From Acidobacteriota bacterium (GTDB lineage: Bacteria > Acidobacteriota > Terriglobia > Bryobacterales > Bryobacteraceae): 64,000 nucleotides of DNA. The position numbers and the translations under genes are program-made. Positions 4,257 through 13,656 of this stretch are shown piece by piece. Every line of letters starts with the position of its first letter. The first letter of the stretch is position 1. The DNA is taken from assembly GCA_026394055.1 (NCBI GenBank), contig JAPKYZ010000037.1, positions 1-64,000 on the forward strand. Direction: 5' to 3'. The notes under the pieces were generated by a model, which saw only the letters and a list, made by a program, of their open reading frames with translations, was not told the DNA's origin and searched no databases.

Positions 4257-5657
4257 ATGCGCGTGTTGATGGTTGGATCAGAGGTGGCGCCTTTCGCCAA
4301 AAGCGGTGGGCTCGGTGATGTCCTGGGGGCACTGCCCCCGGTGCTGGTGGAAGCGGGCATCGAGACGGCCGTGGTGCTGCCCCGCTATCGCAAAATTCCG
4401 CTCGAAGGCCTGCGCAAGGTCTTCGGTGAGATGCGCATCTGGATGTCTGGCGGCTACTACCTGGCCGACGTCTACCAGCTGGACCTCCGCGGCGTCGCCC
4501 ACTACTTGATCGACTGCCCGCCGCTTTATGACCGCGACAACTTCTATGGCTACGACGACGACCACGTCCGCTTCGGCGCCCTCTGCCGCGCCGCGCTCGA
4601 AGTAGCTCGCCATCTGTTCCGCCCGGACGTGATCCATTGCCATGACTGGCAAGCCGGACTGCTGCCGCTCTACTTGAAAAACTTCTTCCCGGGCGACCCC
4701 ACCTTTGCGGGCATCAAGTCTGTGATGACCATCCACTCGCTCGAACACCGCGGCTTCTTCCCGCAGTCACAGCTGGGCGCCGTGGGCCTCAACGGCAGCT
4801 ACTGGCGCAGCGACTTGGTGGAGTTCAACGGCATGGGCAGCACCATGAAAGCCGGCATCGTCTTCGCCGACCGTGTCACCACCGTCAGCCCCAACTACGC
4901 CCGCGAGATCCAAACGCCCGAATACGGCTTCGGCCTCGATGGCCTGCTCCGCGCCCGCTCCCGTGATCTCACCGGCCTGCTCAACGGCGTCGACTACACC
5001 GAATGGAACCCGGAAACGGATCGTCACCTGGCCCAGACCTACTCCGTCGAAACGCTTGAAGGCAAGCGCGCCTGCAAAGCCGCTCTGCTCCAGCAATTCG
5101 GCTTCTCCGTGGAAGAAGTGATCGACCGGCCGCTGATCGGCGTCGTCTCCCGCCTGGCTGACCAGAAGGGCTTCGACCTGCTGGGCCAGGTCTTCCATGA
5201 ATTCTGCGCCGAAGACATCACCTTCATCCTGCTCGGCTCCGGGGACCCGCGCCAGGAAACCATGTTCTGGCACATGGAAGAGTTCCACAAGCAGAAGGTG
5301 CGCGCGTATCTGGGCTTCTCAAACGCCCTGGCGCACCAGATCTACGCCGGCTCCGACATGTTCCTGATGCCCAGCAAGTACGAACCCTGCGGCCTGTCCC
5401 AGCTCTACGCCCTCCGCTACGGCACCATCCCCATCGTCCGGGCCACGGGCGGTCTCGATGATACGATTGGATCAGGAACGGGTTTTAAGTTCTGGGGATA
5501 CAACGGGTGGGAAATGTTGTTGGCCATCCGGAGTGCATTGGGTGTCTACCACGATGACCCCACCGCCTGGCACACCATGGTGGAAACCGCCATGGGCCAG
5601 GACTTCTCCTGGAGCCAGACAGTGCAGGCATATCGAGCGCTGTACGGTTCCCTGTAG
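4257..5657 (+). CDS. glgA: Glycogen synthase (ADP-glucose type, GT5)
   Basis: Transfers glucose from ADP-glucose to growing alpha-1,4-glucan in the cytoplasm. The 466-residue protein begins with the ADP-glucose binding signature KSGGLGDV at 15-22. It keeps the HCHDWQAGLLP region of the N-terminal Rossmann domain, the VSRLADQKGFDLL segment at the start of the second domain, and the C-terminal PSKYEPCGLSQLYALRYG donor-site motif. Length is normal for GlgA. It follows the oxidoreductase by 27 bases and precedes trxA by 62 bases, so co-transcription is possible. No other glycogen gene is nearby. Confidence 0.96.
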   Translation: MRVLMVGSEVAPFAKSGGLGDVLGALPPVLVEAGIETAVVLPRYRKIPLEGLRKVFGEMRIWMSGGYYLADVYQLDLRGVAHYLIDCPPLYDRDNFYGYDDDHVRFGALCRAALEVARHLFRPDVIHCHDWQAGLLPLYLKNFFPGDPTFAGIKSVMTIHSLEHRGFFPQSQLGAVGLNGSYWRSDLVEFNGMGSTMKAGIVFADRVTTVSPNYAREIQTPEYGFGLDGLLRARSRDLTGLLNGVDYTEWNPETDRHLAQTYSVETLEGKRACKAALLQQFGFSVEEVIDRPLIGVVSRLADQKGFDLLGQVFHEFCAEDITFILLGSGDPRQETMFWHMEEFHKQKVRAYLGFSNALAHQIYAGSDMFLMPSKYEPCGLSQLYALRYGTIPIVRATGGLDDTIGSGTGFKFWGYNGWEMLLAIRSALGVYHDDPTAWHTMVETAMGQDFSWSQTVQAYRALYGSL

Positions 5658-6124: not shown

Positions 6125-6511
6125 TTAGGAGGCTGACCGGATGTCAGTCTTGGCGAAATCGTCACCCTTGTAGAGAAGCGGTTCTCGAGCCAGCCGAGCT
6201 GTCGCGTAGGCACAGCAATCAGCTAGATTGAGGCGCGCCGCATGATTGCCCTTCCCGAATCGCAACCAAGCGCGGCGGGACACTTCGGCATGCTCCGCCG
6301 TGAAGGCCACTTCAGTGAGATCCATGTCCCGCCGAAGTTGGTCCCAATCCTCGCCGCCACCCTTTTTCCGGGATGAAGCCACCAGGGCAATCTCCAAAGA
6401 AGTAACTGACGAGATGAGCCGCGTAGGATCTGCCTTGATCAGACGACCGAACAGCGGCGCCTCCGGTTCCCAGAGCAAAATGGCCATGATTGCCGACGAG
6501 TCGATCACCAT
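6125..6511 (-). CDS. vapC: PIN-domain toxin of a type II TA system (VapC family)
   Basis: Probable Mg-dependent RNase of 128 residues. The acidic PIN residues are visible: Asp in MVIDSSA at the N-terminus, a Glu in the SLEIALV helix, Asp in LADCCAYA and the pair in KGDDF near the C-terminus. Known VapC toxins cut tRNA or rRNA; the target here is unknown. It starts 6 bases after the stop of the antitoxin gene, the usual vapB-vapC order. It is convergent with trxA. Confidence 0.9.
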   Translation of the reverse strand: MVIDSSAIMAILLWEPEAPLFGRLIKADPTRLISSVTSLEIALVASSRKKGGGEDWDQLRRDMDLTEVAFTAEHAEVSRRAWLRFGKGNHAARLNLADCCAYATARLAREPLLYKGDDFAKTDIRSAS

Positions 6512-6517
6512 CGTGGC

Positions 6518-6781
6518 CTAGTCGAAACCGCCATATTCGTTGTAGCCGAGGATTTCGTCCTCAGATCGCACATCTCCTTCCGGACGGGCCCGGTAGGACT
6601 CACTGATCGCTCGAATTCGCTCGAGAAAATCGTCCTGATCATCTCGATGTCCATTGAGAATCTTCCGGTCATATCGCTCCCGGACCGATGCGGTGACCGC
6701 CTCGGTGATCGATTCACCCGTGAGGGCCGCCAATCTCCGGGTCAACGTCTCCGTCTCTGGATTCTTGATATTCAAAGCCAT
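6518..6781 (-). CDS. vapB: Antitoxin, VapB family (Rv0623-like)
   Basis: An 87-residue antitoxin starting with MALNIKNPETE, the hallmark N-terminus of this VapB/PSK family, followed by LTRRLAALTGESITEAV. The N-terminal part should bind DNA and dimerise and the acidic C-terminus should wrap the toxin. I chose the ATG at 6781 because an AGGTGGAAGAAG ribosome site lies just upstream; a longer frame exists but lacks this. It precedes vapC in one transcription unit and probably represses it. Confidence 0.9.
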   Translation of the reverse strand: MALNIKNPETETLTRRLAALTGESITEAVTASVRERYDRKILNGHRDDQDDFLERIRAISESYRARPEGDVRSEDEILGYNEYGGFD

Positions 6782-6891
6782 CTTCTTCCACCTGATCTTT
6801 ATTCTACATCGGAAGGAAGAAACTGGCACCGAACAGATTCCGCGCCAAGCCTTCCCATGGCTCAGTTAACATGGTTTAGCTCCCGGCACCG

Positions 6892-9366
6892 ATGTCCACC
6901 ACGCTGCCCAATACGCCCTATGACCCGCTAGCTGTCGGCCAACTCCTGCTGGACCGCTTCCGCGTCGTGAGGCGCATCGCGCAAGGTGGCATGGGCGTGG
7001 TCTACGAAGCGTTTGACCAAAAGCTGGACCGGCCGATCGCCCTCAAGTGCGCCCGCGCCGGGCGGGACCGGCACCTGCTGCCGGAAGTTCGCCTCGCCAC
7101 CGAAGTCAGCCACCCCAACCTCTGCAAGATCCACGAGATCCATTCCATCGAGACTCCCGACGGGCCCTTGGAGTTCTTCACGATGGAACTGCTGAAGGGC
7201 CCCACGCTGTTTCTTCGCCTGAAGGAAGGGCCGATTCCACCAGATGAGGCCGAAACGATTGCCCGGCAGCTCTGCTCTGGACTCGCCGAGGCTCACCGCC
7301 ACCAGATCATCCATGGCGACCTGAAGCCCGCCAACCTGATCCTGGCCAAGAACCCCGATGGCTCCCTGCGCACCGTCATCACCGACTTTGGCCTCGCTCA
7401 CGGTGTCTCGGTCCGCAACACCGGCGGCGGCTCGCCCGGCTACATGGCCCCGGAGCTATTCCGCGGCTCGCGCACCACCGTCGCCACCGACATCTATGCG
7501 CTGGGCGTCATCCTCTACGAACTGATCTCCGGCTACCGGCCGCAAACTCGCGCCGCGATGCTGGCCTCCACCGTCTCGATCGACGCCGACCACGCGCCGG
7601 ACCGGACGGACCGCACTGCCCAACCCGCCACCATCGTCCCCGAGAAGCTGCCGCCGTTGGGCTCCCGCTGGGATCGTATCCTCGCCAAATGCCTCCAGGG
7701 GGACCCGGCGCAGCGCTACCAGTCCGCCCAGGAGATCCTCGATTCGTTGGGGCCCTCCCAGCTCAAGCGCCGCGTCTACCTGGGCGCCGGAGCGGTCGTG
7801 CTCGCAGCCCTGGCCGCCGTCGGCACCTACTGGCAGGCCTCCAAGCCCGCCCAAAGCGCCATCCTGGAGCTGCCGTCCATCCAGGCTCCTGCTGCTCTCG
7901 CCAGTGATGCCCAGCGCTTGGGTCAGCAAACGCTCGATGTCCTGGGCCAGTTGAAGGACAGCCGGCAGCTCGGCTTTTCGGTGAAGACCCGCAACTGGAG
8001 CACGGCCACGCACCGGCTCGCCGTTGATCTCACGCCCAAGGCCGGCAAGCTCGCTCTCCATGCGGTACTGGTGGACCTGCGCTCCAACGCGCCGTTGCTC
8101 GATTGGTCCGCCAACTACACCGCCGCCGATCTCTCCTATGCCCCAGTGGCTTTGACCGGCGTCGTCAGCCGGGCGCTCCACCTGCCCGCGTTGCGCACCT
8201 CCGCCACGGTTAGCCCTCCAGCCCAGCCCCATTACGACCGCGGCCTGGAGCTCTTCAAAGACGACACCCAACAGGACGCCGCCTTGGAAGAGCTGCGCAA
8301 AGCAGCCGCACTCGATCCCGGCTCAGCCTTGCCCTACGCCGCTTTGGCGGAAGTTCAGCGGCGCAAAGCGTTCCTGACCAAAGTCGCCAGTTGGCGCGCC
8401 CAGGCGGCGGCTTCGCTTGAGCAAGCCGAGCTGCGTAACTCCGACTGTGCGGAAGTGCACCGCATCGCCGGACTGATGGAGATGGATACGGGCCTCCCGG
8501 AGCGGGCCCTCGCCCGGATGCTCCGCGCCACGGAGTTTCAGCCCCCGCACCCGGATGCCTTCCGCCGCCTGGGTGAGATCTACTATCAGGCCCGCCAGCT
8601 GCCGGAGGCATTGCAGGCCTACCTCGAGGCCCAACGCCTGGCGCCGGACGACGTCCGCATCTATCAATCGCTGGCCGTACTCTACGCCTCCCAGTCCAAC
8701 CTTGCAGAGGCGTCAAAGGCGCTGGTGCGAGCCGTGGAGCTGGCCCCCAAGCGTCCGCAATTGCGCCGGCGGCTGGCCGCGGTCTACCAGGATCAAGGGC
8801 GATTCGCGGAGGCCCAGGCCGAACTGCGCACAGCGCTCAACCAGGAAGTGAATACCGATACGCTGGTCCAACTGGGCCACGTGCTGCTCTACCTAAGCCG
8901 CGGCGACGATGCGCTGGACCCCTTGCTCGAAGCCACCAAAATGGCGCCCACCGATACCTACGCGTGGCTCTACCTGGGTGTGGCCTATCAAGGCATGGGC
9001 CGCACCGCACCCGCCCAAGCGGCCTTCCATCATGCCCGCACGCTGGCCGAACAGGCCGTGATCGGACAGCCCCGCAGCAGCATCTTCCGCGGCATGCTGG
9101 CCTATCTCTGCGCCCAAACCGGCGAGCCGGACCGGGCCCGCCTGGAGGCCGCACAGGCGCTCCAGCTTTCGCCCAAAGACAACGACACCATCTACTGGAC
9201 GGTCCTCGCCTACCAGTGGGTCGGCGATTTGGACAGCGCTCTGAAGGCGCTTGAGCCCGCACCACGGGCGCTGCTGGAGGACTTCTCGCGCTGGCCGGAA
9301 GCTGCGCGGATCATGCGTGACCCGCGCTTTGTCCAACTCCTGCGGGCCTCGGCCACTCGCCCTTAG
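6892..9366 (+). CDS. Membrane Ser/Thr protein kinase with C-terminal TPR repeats
   Basis: An 824-residue Hanks-type kinase. The kinase domain covers about 22-285: glycine loop AQGGMG, ATP Lys52 (IALKCA), catalytic loop HGDLKPAN at 141-148, DFG at 165-167 and APE at 186-188. The loop has HGD instead of HRD, so it is a non-RD kinase. A single membrane helix lies at about 296-314. The rest, about 450-815, is a long run of TPR-like repeats (for example the segment LPYAALAEVQRRKA) facing the periplasm if topology is standard. It precedes the lysine-rich/protease cassette by 171 bases; a functional link is only inferred. Confidence 0.92.
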   Translation: MSTTLPNTPYDPLAVGQLLLDRFRVVRRIAQGGMGVVYEAFDQKLDRPIALKCARAGRDRHLLPEVRLATEVSHPNLCKIHEIHSIETPDGPLEFFTMELLKGPTLFLRLKEGPIPPDEAETIARQLCSGLAEAHRHQIIHGDLKPANLILAKNPDGSLRTVITDFGLAHGVSVRNTGGGSPGYMAPELFRGSRTTVATDIYALGVILYELISGYRPQTRAAMLASTVSIDADHAPDRTDRTAQPATIVPEKLPPLGSRWDRILAKCLQGDPAQRYQSAQEILDSLGPSQLKRRVYLGAGAVVLAALAAVGTYWQASKPAQSAILELPSIQAPAALASDAQRLGQQTLDVLGQLKDSRQLGFSVKTRNWSTATHRLAVDLTPKAGKLALHAVLVDLRSNAPLLDWSANYTAADLSYAPVALTGVVSRALHLPALRTSATVSPPAQPHYDRGLELFKDDTQQDAALEELRKAAALDPGSALPYAALAEVQRRKAFLTKVASWRAQAAASLEQAELRNSDCAEVHRIAGLMEMDTGLPERALARMLRATEFQPPHPDAFRRLGEIYYQARQLPEALQAYLEAQRLAPDDVRIYQSLAVLYASQSNLAEASKALVRAVELAPKRPQLRRRLAAVYQDQGRFAEAQAELRTALNQEVNTDTLVQLGHVLLYLSRGDDALDPLLEATKMAPTDTYAWLYLGVAYQGMGRTAPAQAAFHHARTLAEQAVIGQPRSSIFRGMLAYLCAQTGEPDRARLEAAQALQLSPKDNDTIYWTVLAYQWVGDLDSALKALEPAPRALLEDFSRWPEAARIMRDPRFVQLLRASATRP

Positions 9367-9537
9367 CCGTCACTGCTCAGCCGGTCGAAAAATCGTTGAC
9401 TTACTGAAATGGCTATGTGATCGTAGAGTGCAATCACCGACTTCTCGGTGCACCCGAAGGGAGATCAAGCCACATGGCCTCGACAAATCCGGCCGCACTC
9501 CGCGCCGCCCACTTGAACTTCACCGCAGGAGGCAACC

Positions 9538-9864
9538 ATGGCCGGCGGTAACAACAGCTCGACGGTCGACCTCAGCGGCGGCGGCGGCAACAACAGCTCC
9601 ACCACTGATCTCACCGGTGGATCCGGAACCGGCGCCGCCACCAAGAAGGTCGCCATCAAGACCACGGCCGCCACCAAGACCCCGGCCAAGAAAGCGGTCA
9701 AGAAGGCCGTCAAAAAGACCGTGGTGAAAAAGGCTCCGGCCAAGAAGGCAGTGAAGAAGGCCGCGCCCGCAAACAAGACTGCGGTAAAGAAAGCGGCGCC
9801 CGCCAAGAAGGCAGCGAAGAAGGCTCCGGCCAAAGCCGTGAAGAAGGCCGCCCAAAAGAGCTAG
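9538..9864 (+). CDS. Lysine/alanine-rich histone H1-like protein
   Basis: A 108-residue protein in two parts. Residues 1-40 are Gly/Asn/Ser/Thr-rich with two imperfect copies of GGNNSSTxDL. The rest is made of degenerate KKAPAKKA-type repeats, giving a very high positive charge like bacterial histone-H1-like (Hc1/AlgP-type) tails. Such proteins usually bind DNA or RNA without a fixed fold. A strong AGGAGG site sits 6 bases before the ATG. It stands just before a papain-like protease gene in the same orientation, which is unusual company. No export signal is seen. Confidence 0.75.
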   Translation: MAGGNNSSTVDLSGGGGNNSSTTDLTGGSGTGAATKKVAIKTTAATKTPAKKAVKKAVKKTVVKKAPAKKAVKKAAPANKTAVKKAAPAKKAAKKAPAKAVKKAAQKS

Positions 9865-9920
9865 CCTTGGCCGCCGTTCAAGCCAGCCGCGGCAACACAA
9901 CAACGGGAGGCCAGACAACA

Positions 9921-10472
9921 GTGGGTACCACCAAGGACACCAGCCTCCCGTTCAAAGTTGAACCGCAGAAGAACACCGAATGGTGCTGGGCGGCGGTGAC
10001 GGTCAGCGTGGATCGTTTCTTCCGCCCCACCTCGAAGAAGTCCCAATGCCAGATCGTCGGCAAAGCGCTCAACAAGTCCTGTTGCGGCTCCGGCCAGCCC
10101 GTCCCGCCGGACAGCCCCTGCAATTTACAGGGCTTGCTGCATGAGGAGCTGAAGAAGTTGGGCCTGCTGGCCCGTGATCCTCTCCTTGAGCCAGCAACGT
10201 TCCCGATCGTCCAGCGCGAAGTGGATGCCGGCCGTCCCCTTTGCGTGCTGATCAAGTGGCGAGACAAGAAGGGCGTGGTCACCAATCGCGGCCACTTCAT
10301 CACCATCAGCGGCTACAGTCTCACGCCGTCGGGCAAGGCGTTCGTCACCATCGACGACCCACTCTTCGGCGTCTCCAGCGTCGACTATGCCGGCCTGGCC
10401 GACCCCGACTTCGGCTATCACGATGGCACCGGCAAGTGGTTTGCCACATTTCTGGTTCAGAGGCCCACCTAA
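9921..10472 (+). CDS. Papain-like cysteine protease (C39/C70-like)
   Basis: Probable cysteine peptidase of 183 residues. The catalytic Cys lies in EWCWAA (Cys22 from the chosen start), the His in NRGHFITIS (His125) and the acidic residue in VTIDDP (Asp145), the usual Cys-His-Asp order of C39-like and AvrRpt2-like peptidases. I chose the GTG at 9921 because GGGAGG lies 10 bases upstream; a longer frame opens with TTG at 9867 without a clear ribosome site. Two further Cys pairs (including a CC) could form disulfides. The downstream gene starts inside its stop codon. No signal peptide is seen, and the substrate is unknown. Confidence 0.72.
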   Translation: MGTTKDTSLPFKVEPQKNTEWCWAAVTVSVDRFFRPTSKKSQCQIVGKALNKSCCGSGQPVPPDSPCNLQGLLHEELKKLGLLARDPLLEPATFPIVQREVDAGRPLCVLIKWRDKKGVVTNRGHFITISGYSLTPSGKAFVTIDDPLFGVSSVDYAGLADPDFGYHDGTGKWFATFLVQRPT

Positions 10473-11170
10473 TGCCCCTCAACATCAGCCCTCCATCCGC
10501 GGATCTGCTGTCCGTCTACTCGCGCGCTTTGAAAGACCTCACCGGCCGCCCGTGCGATGAGAGCAAGGTCAGTCACATTCCCGCCGGCATTCTCTATGAG
10601 GAGGACCTGCTGAGCGGCAAAGGTCTGGAAGCCGTGGTGCCTCGCGGCTGCCGGGTCCTCTACCTGGGCGCCTGGAATGGCAAAGAGCCCAGCGTCACCA
10701 TCTGCGAGATGCCGGACGCCACCAGTGACAAGCCCACCGAAATTCGCTCCTTCACCCAGGGGACCCTGGCCAACATTGTGAGCAAGCGCATCGGTGAAGC
10801 GGGCAAGCTGAAGCAGTTGCTCGCCGCTCACTTTGACTTGCGTTTCCTCATCATGCCGGAAATTCAGCTGCAGGCCGTGCATCTGGCCTTCAAAGGCACG
10901 ATCGAGGACGTCATCCTCCCCGTTCTTGCCAGTGAGCCTCAACTAAACCAGGCCATCTCAAAAGCCAAACAGTTCCTCAGCCAGCCGCAAATTCAACAGG
11001 CCGTCAGTCTGGTCTCCAAAGCCGCCCTGGAGGATCTCATCCTCACGGTCGTTTCCGGTGACCCGCGGCTCAGTCCCTTGGCCATCTTGAAGGCCAGCGA
11101 CTTTCTGAGGATCGCCCGCCAGATCGCCACCGAACGGGCCGCGCGAACCCGCGATCCTCTCAGCTCATAG
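10472..11170 (+). CDS. Hypothetical protein coupled to the protease
   Basis: A 232-residue protein whose ATG overlaps the TAA of the protease gene by one base, so the two are almost certainly translated together. I recognise no family. The N-terminal half (about 1-110) has alternating strands and a segment CRVLYLGAWNGKEPSVTICEM; the C-terminal half is helical with two related stretches (TIEDVILPVLASEPQL and ALEDLILTVVSGDPRL), suggesting an internal repeat of about 55 residues. No signal peptide or membrane helix. It could be a substrate, inhibitor or chaperone of the protease; this is inference from coupling only. Confidence 0.65.
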   Translation: MPLNISPPSADLLSVYSRALKDLTGRPCDESKVSHIPAGILYEEDLLSGKGLEAVVPRGCRVLYLGAWNGKEPSVTICEMPDATSDKPTEIRSFTQGTLANIVSKRIGEAGKLKQLLAAHFDLRFLIMPEIQLQAVHLAFKGTIEDVILPVLASEPQLNQAISKAKQFLSQPQIQQAVSLVSKAALEDLILTVVSGDPRLSPLAILKASDFLRIARQIATERAARTRDPLSS

Positions 11171-12925: not shown

Positions 12926-12989
12926 GAAACCAGCAGTTTATCGCGATAGGGGCGGGCGGTGCCGAGCATCTGGCGAGCTCGCTCCCGCT

Positions 12990-13002
12990 ATACTTCGAGT
13001 AT
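12990..13002. promoter_or_regulatory. Inverted repeat at the start of the DUF433 gene
   Basis: ATACT-TCG-AGTAT, a perfect 5-base inverted repeat with a 3-base centre that overlaps the ATG at 13001. Its placement fits an autoregulatory operator for the TA-like pair that follows, but it is short and could be chance. Confidence 0.3.
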
Positions 13003-13312
13003 GGTTGCGGCTTTTGCCACGCAAATCGAGCTCGATGCAAGCGGCGTGCCCTGGATTGTCGGCACCAGGGTAAAGGTCGCCGAAGTGGTGCTCGATAAAC
13101 TGGCCCATGGATGGAGCCCGGAAGAGATCCATCTCCAGCATCCGCACCTATCACTGGCGCAGATTCACGGCGCCCTCACCTATTACTACGAAAATCAGCT
13201 GGAACTAGACGCCCAGATGGCAGGCGAACTACGAGAATCGCTTGATTTGGCGGAGCGTCTTGCCGACCCGGCTTGGCAACAGCGGCTGGCTCAGTTGACA
13301 CCCGTCCGGTGA
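13001..13312 (+). CDS. DUF433 protein, likely antitoxin
   Basis: A 103-residue protein with the DUF433 pattern: GVPWIVGTRVKVAEVVLDKLAHGWSP followed by a helix-turn-helix-like segment and LTYYYENQ. DUF433 proteins commonly precede DUF5615 PIN-like proteins and are regarded as their antitoxins; here the order and a 4-base GTGA overlap are exactly that. I chose the ATG at 13001; the frame stays open further upstream but would enter the ilvD leader. Confidence 0.82.
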   Translation: MVAAFATQIELDASGVPWIVGTRVKVAEVVLDKLAHGWSPEEIHLQHPHLSLAQIHGALTYYYENQLELDAQMAGELRESLDLAERLADPAWQQRLAQLTPVR

Positions 13313-13656
13313 CGGTTCGCTTCTACATGGATGTTCATGTGCCCCGCGCCGTGGTGGTCGCGCTGCGCTTGCGGGACATCGATATCCTCACCGCGCAACA
13401 AGATGGAACGGCCACGTGGGATGACGCACAACTGCTGAATCGGGCATCTGCGTTGAATCGCGTGCTGGTCACCCAGGATTCTGATCTCCTGCGCGAGGGC
13501 GCTCAACTGCAGATGGAGGGCCAGCCCTTTGCCGGGATCATCTACGCGCATCAGCGGTTGGTCAGTATCGGCCAGTTCATTGACTCGCTCACACTGATCG
13601 CCTATGCCACCTCCACACAGGAGTGGGCCAACCGAATCGCGTATCTTCCGCTGTAA
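13309..13656 (+). CDS. DUF5615 PIN-like protein, likely toxin
   Basis: A 115-residue protein starting at a GTG that overlaps the antitoxin stop. It opens with VRFYMDVHVPRAVV, the DUF5615 N-terminus holding the first acidic residue, followed by DGTATWDDAQLLNRA and LVTQDSDLL with further PIN-type Asp residues. The fold is related to PIN RNases. Target RNA is unknown. Confidence 0.82.
   Translation: MTVRFYMDVHVPRAVVVALRLRDIDILTAQQDGTATWDDAQLLNRASALNRVLVTQDSDLLREGAQLQMEGQPFAGIIYAHQRLVSIGQFIDSLTLIAYATSTQEWANRIAYLPL

What the first reader, a model, noticed from the sequence alone, without database searches (positions are those of the whole stretch)
6892..11170. Kinase, histone-H1-like protein, papain-like protease and coupled orphan in one directional cluster
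Four same-strand genes follow one another: a non-RD Ser/Thr kinase with a large TPR arm, a short lysine-rich H1-like protein, a C39/C70-like cysteine protease, and a 232-residue orphan that begins inside the protease stop codon. The protease and orphan are clearly coupled. I know of no described system with this set. The orphan shows an internal helical repeat. A protease acting on the H1-like protein or on the orphan is a testable idea, but it is inference.
Basis: partly seen in the sequence, partly recalled or inferred. Interest (0 to 1): 0.58.

Follow-up and report, generated by a model that had tools for sequence, protein, structure and literature searches.

The report
Protease with its own partner gene
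A protein-cutting enzyme and an unnamed partner protein are encoded side by side in distantly related bacteria and some archaea; the partner is most likely the enzyme's dedicated brake, and here the pair sits behind a membrane signalling kinase and a small glycine- and lysine-rich protein.

Summary
The protease is a C70/C39-like papain-fold enzyme; its Gln-Cys-His-Asp set is invariant in 40 aligned relatives. The "orphan" founds an unnamed alpha+beta family lying directly 3' of the protease in 75 of 79 testable loci from a genome-wide scan: Acidobacteriota, Proteobacteria, Actinomycetota, a Bacteroidota MAG and two archaeal MAGs. In 32 whole genomes all 31 orphan matches had a protease directly upstream. 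One genome encodes both in one frame. In five genomes where the protease looks exported, the neighbouring orphan relative looks exported too. The protease model best matches staphopain (Z 17.4), whose inhibitor gene is juxtaposed in the same way. I therefore read the orphan as the protease's cognate inhibitor (0.6); partnership itself is near certain, inhibition is inferred. Kinase-TPR, small gene, protease and orphan recur together in 13 Acidobacteriota loci. The "H1-like" gene is not a histone: it is a variable Gly-rich small protein, Lys-rich only in some relatives and fused to the protease in two. The orphan's "helical repeat" is a duplication absent from its closest relatives. New variant of a known kind.

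The parts
6892..9366 (+). Ser/Thr kinase (non-RD, HGD) with one hydrophobic span and TPR arm
   Evidence: Pkinase E 2.5e-37 and TPR families; span aa 295-313, HGDLKP at aa 141; kinase beside the protease in 13 Acidobacteriota loci in this order, plus L148 and, downstream, L143
9396..9437 (+). Conserved upstream element: TTGACTT box and imperfect inverted repeat GTGATCG-N7-CAATCAC (9417-9437)
   Evidence: alignment with L052, L053, L054; repeat found once in the window with 0 mismatches
9538..9864 (+).
   Evidence: HC2 below cut-off; same position in relatives, Lys-rich or not, with Gly runs
9867..10472 (+). C70/C39-like papain-fold cysteine protease (start TTG 9867 or GTG 9921); Cys codon 9984-9986, His 10293-10295, Asp 10356-10358
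   Evidence: Peptidase_C39_2 24.7 bits (cut-off 24), Peptidase_C70 17.6 (cut-off 19); invariant Q/C/H/D; model pLDDT 95.5 matching staphopain
10472..11170 (+).
   Evidence: TAATG overlap; directly 3' of protease in 75 of 79 testable loci and for 31 of 31 matches in 32 genomes; model pLDDT 88.4, pTM 0.81
10856..10978 (+). First copy of the duplicated segment in the partner protein
   Evidence: local alignment score 81; second profile match in own genome
10985..11107 (+). Second copy of the duplicated segment
   Evidence: same as above; single copy in L017 and L032

Best explanation
The protease and the orphan form a dedicated pair: a papain-fold cysteine protease of the C70/C39-like kind and, translationally coupled behind it, its cognate inhibitor, made together so that the protease is held inactive in the producing cell until a signal, cleavage or compartment change releases it. 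It would work like staphopain-staphostatin, but with an inhibitor of a different, unnamed family. In Bryobacteraceae-type Acidobacteriota the pair has been attached to a membrane Ser/Thr kinase with a TPR arm and to a small Gly-rich (often Lys-rich) protein, probably a detached pro-segment or a substrate of the protease. Shown: catalytic residues, adjacency, coupling, one fusion, matched export features, recurrence with the kinase. Inferred: inhibition, what releases it, and the role of the kinase and of the small protein.
For: Orphan directly 3' of the protease in 75 of 79 testable loci; 31 of 31 orphan matches in 32 whole genomes lie behind a protease, second copies included; in a sample of 297 Acidobacteriota genomes all 5 genomes with an orphan match have it beside or in one frame with a protease. 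One-frame fusion in L035. Matched export features in L024, L143, L144, L145, L146, with homology of these neighbours to the orphan by profile comparison (E 5.4e-8 and 6.2e-6; the first set against the protease profile as control gives probability 0.1%). Protease model closest to staphopain, Z 17.4 over 160 aa, with entries solved with staphostatin at ranks 3-4. Precedents with the inhibitor gene beside a papain-fold protease gene: Spi, staphostatin and Bacteroides Bfi (PMC2873492 passages), Cpi1 (PMC12136450 sections 6-7). The orphan diverges more than the protease in 740 of 741 pairs of 39 loci. Weak hint: top structural rows for aa 3-107 of the orphan include stefins/cystatins, Z up to 4.4.
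Against: No inhibition or binding was shown. The stefin match is below the level that means anything alone, and no staphostatin or Cpi1 match was listed. Some proteases of the family have no detected orphan: L086, L104, L118 (none in their genomes), L129 (its genome has an orphan, but beside another protease), and several phylum hits (L037, L039-L043, L045, L047-L049 by the first profiles; exported relatives were later found beside L039, L040, L042, L043). Adjacency, coupling and fusion fit an activator, chaperone or substrate equally well. In L143 the orphan relative is upstream and in L144 divergent.
Confidence: 0.6

Rival explanations
1. The orphan is an activator, folding chaperone, adaptor or substrate of the protease rather than its inhibitor.
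For: Same adjacency, coupling and fusion evidence. Many orphans end in GG-like tails (for example VGG, LGG, KGG, SGG), which a Gly-preferring papain-fold protease could process.
Against: GG tails are absent in the window and many others. Exported orphan relatives carry their own signal-like N-termini, so a purely cytoplasmic chaperone role is unlikely for them. Closest precedents by protease fold and gene layout are inhibitors.
Confidence: 0.27
2. The pair is an interbacterial toxin and immunity protein like Cpe1-Cpi1, delivered by T6SS or CDI.
For: Same fold class (entry 9l5u Z 12.6, CdiA-CT 8ssm Z 11.4) and same gene layout (PMC12136450). In L140 the pair lies about 2.5 kb from an annotated polymorphic toxin gene and further from a DUF2169 gene.
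Against: 15 of 31 carrier genomes, the window's own included, have no match to T6SS VipA. No PAAR, VgrG, Rhs or CdiA domain was seen on the 14 proteases scanned. The pair is in two archaeal MAGs.
Confidence: 0.12
3. Only protease and orphan belong together; kinase and small gene are local neighbours kept by synteny.
For: Outside Acidobacteriota the pair stands without the kinase. The small gene has its own promoter-like region.
Against: The kinase is beside the pair in 13 loci of differing genera, and also in L148 and L143 of other families, in L143 with other order. Two genomes carry second kinase-protease-orphan copies (L184, L185). The small protein's Gly-rich region is fused to the protease in L130 and L184.
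Confidence: 0.3

Closest known systems
Staphopain-staphostatin (peptidase family C47 and its inhibitor)
   Same: Papain-fold protease, best structural match (Z 17.4); inhibitor gene juxtaposed with the protease gene (PMC2873492)
   Different: No C47 match among the Pfam hits; partner is about 180-230 aa, alpha+beta, not a recognisable lipocalin-like staphostatin; no export signal seen in the window copy; phyla far from staphylococci
Cpe1-Cpi1 and CdiA-CT/CdiI papain-like toxin-immunity pairs
   Same: Papain-like protease followed by a partner gene in the reported size range, 79-239 aa; same fold class
   Different: No secretion carrier; VipA missing in 15 of 31 genomes; no sequence match of the orphan profile to those PDB entries at E up to 10
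C39 double-glycine peptidases (ComA, LahT, PCAT1)
   Same: Fold (Z 13-14) and weak profile match (6mpz E 0.0029); Gly runs in the adjacent small proteins
   Different: No ABC transporter domain in the proteases scanned; closer to staphopain by structure
AvrRpt2/EvpQ C70 effectors
   Same: Pfam Peptidase_C70 in relatives above cut-off
   Different: Window copy is below the C70 cut-off (17.6 against 19); paired with an orphan and, here, a kinase; no injected-effector context
Bacteroides C10 proteases with staphostatin-like Bfi inhibitors
   Same: Protease co-transcribed with an adjacent inhibitor gene; inhibitors predicted exported (PMC2873492 passages)
   Different: Different peptidase family and different inhibitor family

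Membership tests
Peptidase_C70 / C39_2 (papain-like) | Score above the curated Pfam cut-off | tested here: met
   Window: C39_2 24.7 (cut-off 24) met, C70 17.6 (cut-off 19) not met; relatives pass C70 (e.g. 41.6, 44.6)
Peptidase_C70 / C39_2 (papain-like) | Oxyanion Gln and Cys-His-Asp triad | tested here: met
   Invariant in 40 sequences
Staphopain (C47) | Sequence match to the C47 family | tested here: not met
   Pfam scan to E 1 gives only C39_2 and C70
Staphopain (C47) | Staphopain-like fold | tested here: met
   Foldseek E 5.4e-7, Z 17.4 over 160 aa
Staphostatin | Lipocalin-like barrel that binds the active site | tested here: inconclusive
   No listed match for the orphan model; binding not testable
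Cystatin/stefin inhibitors | Cystatin fold | tested here: inconclusive
   Best rows Z 4.4 and 4.3 over 82 aa, not significant alone
Cpe1-Cpi1 interbacterial toxin-immunity | Association with T6SS or CDI carrier | tested here: not met
   15 of 31 genomes, own included, without VipA; no carrier domain on the 14 proteases scanned
Cpe1-Cpi1 interbacterial toxin-immunity | Toxicity neutralised by the downstream protein | not testable with these tools
   Needs expression assays
Histone H1-like HC2 | HC2 profile above cut-off | tested here: not met
   21.8 bits against 40; position not conserved as Lys-rich

The most novel reading that the evidence does not exclude
A kinase-gated proteolytic switch: the membrane TPR-kinase senses a signal, phosphorylation of the inhibitor or of the small protein frees the protease, and the protease cuts the small protein at its Gly run, releasing a Lys-rich tail or a 'GPIVI' segment as the output; the small protein is a detached pro-segment of the protease. 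Behind it stands an unnamed inhibitor family shared by bacteria and archaea.
Probability: 0.15. Interest if true: 0.78.

Novelty: new variant of a known kind. Interest (0 to 1): 0.56.

Why it matters
It gives a function to test for an unnamed protein family (no Pfam or NCBIfam match above cut-off) that follows one protease through several bacterial phyla and two archaeal MAGs. If the partner is an inhibitor, it is a further kind beside Spi and staphostatin for papain-fold proteases with a partner gene alongside. The Acidobacteriota form links such a pair to a membrane Ser/Thr kinase, which would make kinase-controlled proteolysis in these common soil bacteria directly testable.

Tried and rejected
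Considered and set aside. (1) A histone role for the Lys-rich gene: below the HC2 cut-off, and the position is taken by non-lysine proteins in L018, L022, L078, L076, L130 and L185. (2) A PADLOC defence system: the kinase matches many generic kinase models (PD-T4-6, mad6); protease, orphan and small gene match none. (3) The ADRM1 and 2-hydroxyacyl-CoA lyase hits to the orphan: E 0.05-0.2, taken as chance. (4) Orphan fold: no Foldseek match with E up to 0.001; SAS-6, stefin and Nup133 rows are weak. (5) Finding the orphan alone by pattern scan of genome contigs: none confirmed; with the protease alignment, 80 loci. (6) Phage records: no match to the Pseudomonas protease; plasmids 14 records, of which I opened five. 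(7) Loci L025-L027 from weak protease hits (E 0.006-0.009) show no clear family member and were dropped. (8) L003 and L004 (E 0.002-0.009) were not followed. (9) A pattern for the promoter-like box in the own genome used a wrong spacer (9 N instead of 8) and found nothing; not informative. (10) Literature: the listings showed no paper that describes this protease-orphan pair; many subscription papers are not held.

Limits. About half of the 80 loci are Pseudomonas; 39 of 84 orphans remain at under 62% identity. The second orphan profile was built partly from the loci it was then run on; the first profile (9 Acidobacteriota sequences) already hit most of them. The start nearest the protease stop was chosen for the spacing count (75 of 76 within 20 bases), which favours short gaps. 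The Gly-run count (GGG in 11 of 13 small proteins against 26 of 439 control windows; GG 13 of 13 against 189 of 439) includes three same-genus proteins, the L130 fusion (whole ORF), and L147, which I added after seeing it. Archaeal and Bacteroidota members are MAG contigs. Export signals were judged by eye.
Full report
OBSERVATION. The window is part of a contig of an Acidobacteriota-like genome (G000:C49; the closest named relatives are Bryobacteraceae/Solibacteraceae MAGs). The three short genes are packed almost without gaps. In both other genomes of the genus that are held (G464, G494) the order glgA, kinase, Lys-rich gene, protease, orphan, ilvD is kept. Identity to the window falls from 94% (ilvD) and 91% (glgA) to 80% (kinase), 62-66% (protease) and 60% (orphan), so the pair evolves much faster than its flanks.

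PROTEASE. Pfam places it with Peptidase_C39_2 (24.7 bits, cut-off 24) and just under Peptidase_C70 (17.6, cut-off 19); relatives pass C70 clearly. In 40 aligned relatives the WCWAA Cys, the preceding Gln, the GH His and the DP Asp are invariant, with conserved extra cysteines. The predicted structure (pLDDT 95.5) is closest to staphopain (Foldseek E 5.4e-7; Z 17.4 over 160 residues), ahead of ComA/PCAT1/LahT (Z about 13-14), a papain-like toxin/immunity entry 9l5u (Z 12.6) and CdiA-CT 8ssm (Z 11.4). By profile against PDB sequences the best hit was the LahT-type double-glycine protease 6mpz, E 0.0029.

ORPHAN. It has no Pfam, NCBIfam or PADLOC match above cut-off and no convincing PDB sequence match. 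A profile of nine Acidobacteriota orphans run over the loci found with the protease alignment (80 kept of 102 confirmed) hits the ORF directly 3' of the protease in most of them. With the iterated profile, 75 of 80 loci have it; L102 ends at the protease, so 75 of 79 testable; the four without are L086, L104, L118 and L129. Carriers include Acidobacteriota, Methylobacterium, Bradyrhizobium, Rhizobium, Azospirillum, Burkholderia, Pseudomonas, Photorhabdus, Pseudoxanthomonas, Mycobacterium, Nocardia, a Bacteroidota MAG and two archaeal MAGs (Sigynarchaeota, Bathyarchaeota). The start lies within 20 bases of the protease stop in 75 of 76 cases by my choice of start. The reverse test is stronger: in 32 whole genomes reached through these loci, 29 have an orphan match, and all 31 matches have a protease directly upstream, including second copies in G509 and G511 and one in the genome of L129, whose first-found protease has no partner. 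In a sample of 297 Acidobacteriota genomes, five have an orphan match and all five lie beside or in one frame with a protease. In L035 (G197) protease and orphan are one open frame of 444 codons.

EXPORTED PAIRS. In L024, L143, L144, L145 and L146 the protease begins with a signal- or lipoprotein-like N-terminus, and so does a neighbouring protein (judged by eye). Those neighbours are remote orphan relatives: the L024/L145/L146 set aligns with the orphan profile at probability 94.8%, E 5.4e-8, while the same set against the protease profile gives probability 0.1%; the L143/L144 pair gives 85.1%, E 6.2e-6. In L143 the orphan relative lies upstream and in L144 it is divergent, so the link survives reordering. 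Matching compartments argue for physical partnership.

STRUCTURE OF THE ORPHAN. The model of the window protein is good (pLDDT 88.4, pTM 0.81), alpha+beta, with no significant PDB match. Stefins, cystatins and monellin, which share one fold (recalled), appear among the best rows for residues 3-107 (Z 3.5-4.4), next to unrelated rows of the same score. This is a lead only.

SMALL GENE AND KINASE. A kinase stands upstream of protease and orphan in 13 Acidobacteriota loci: the window, L017, L032, L018, L019, L020, L021, L022 (partial, at a contig end), L054, L078, L130, L184 and L185. It is also upstream in L148 and downstream in L143, both from other families. Kinase was scored by similarity to the window kinase, which does not show orthology. 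Between kinase and protease lies a small protein: Lys-rich in the window, L017, L032, L019, L020, L021 and L054; not Lys-rich, with an N-terminal 'IEYKI...TITQR.EP' strand and a 'FGPIVI'-like motif, in L018, L022, L078, L076 and L185. Gly runs are the common feature: GGG in 11 of 13 such proteins against 26 of 439 control 100-residue windows, GG in 13 of 13 against 189 of 439 (selection caveats under Tried and rejected). In L130 and L184 the Gly-rich, GPIVI-like region is the N-terminus of the protease itself, so the small gene looks like a detached N-terminal segment of the protease. In L147 (another family) a 36-residue Lys/Gly-rich frame follows the protease.

MECHANISM. Near-exclusive 3' pairing, coupling, one fusion, matched export features and faster divergence of the partner (less identical than the protease in 740 of 741 pairs; identity matrices correlate, 0 of 2000 permutations, though common descent also gives this) are what a cognate inhibitor would show. 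The protease's nearest structural relatives and several other papain-fold proteases have the inhibitor gene alongside: Spi, staphostatin and Bacteroides Bfi (PMC2873492, passages); Cpi1, which binds beside the active site rather than blocking it (PMC12136450, abstract, passages and sections 6-7). I commit to inhibitor at 0.6; activator, chaperone or substrate remain possible. A T6SS/CDI effector reading is disfavoured: 15 of 31 carrier genomes, the window's own included, have no VipA match, and no carrier domain was seen on the 14 proteases scanned. Some proteases carry binding modules instead (tectonin, C-type lectin, polyglycine-hydrolase-like repeats, Ig-like). EvpQ, a C70 T6SS effector, was seen in passages of PMC7991086; the papain-fold classification in passages of PMC10318531.

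VERDICT. A real, widespread and unnamed protease-partner pair, extended in Acidobacteriota by a kinase and a Gly-rich small protein. New variant of a known kind; interest 0.56.

Noticed in passing
window 6125-6829 (-): A PSK_trans_fac/PIN (VapBC-type) pair lies directly upstream of the kinase on the opposite strand.
   Followed up: no
window 12959-13656 (+): DUF433 followed by an overlapping DUF5615 PIN-like gene, a second toxin-antitoxin-like pair.
   Followed up: no
window 9396-9437: TTGACTT box and imperfect inverted repeat GTGATCG-N7-CAATCAC upstream of the Lys-rich gene; kept in L052 and L053, the box also in L054.
   Followed up: partly
L055, L062, L078, L129, L130: These five loci share a gene that reads like an ECF-type sigma factor; in L130 it lies just upstream of the kinase (identity judged by eye, recalled, not tested).
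   Followed up: no
L088:5197-6501: Protease fused to five BTRD1 'polyglycine hydrolase-like' repeats, of interest given the Gly-rich neighbours elsewhere.
   Followed up: no
L063:2648-3604 and 4278-5156; L147, L148: The protease N-terminal regions and, in L063, the gene after the orphan look alike (a domain with a 'PGG..QF.L' stretch), as if sharing a targeting domain (by eye).
   Followed up: no
L129, L152, L153: Proteases preceded by a protein of about 290-330 residues with a Gly-rich C-terminal part in some (by eye); possibly another class of preceding partner.
   Followed up: no
L184 (G511), L185 (G509): Two genomes carry a second kinase-protease-orphan copy.
   Followed up: partly
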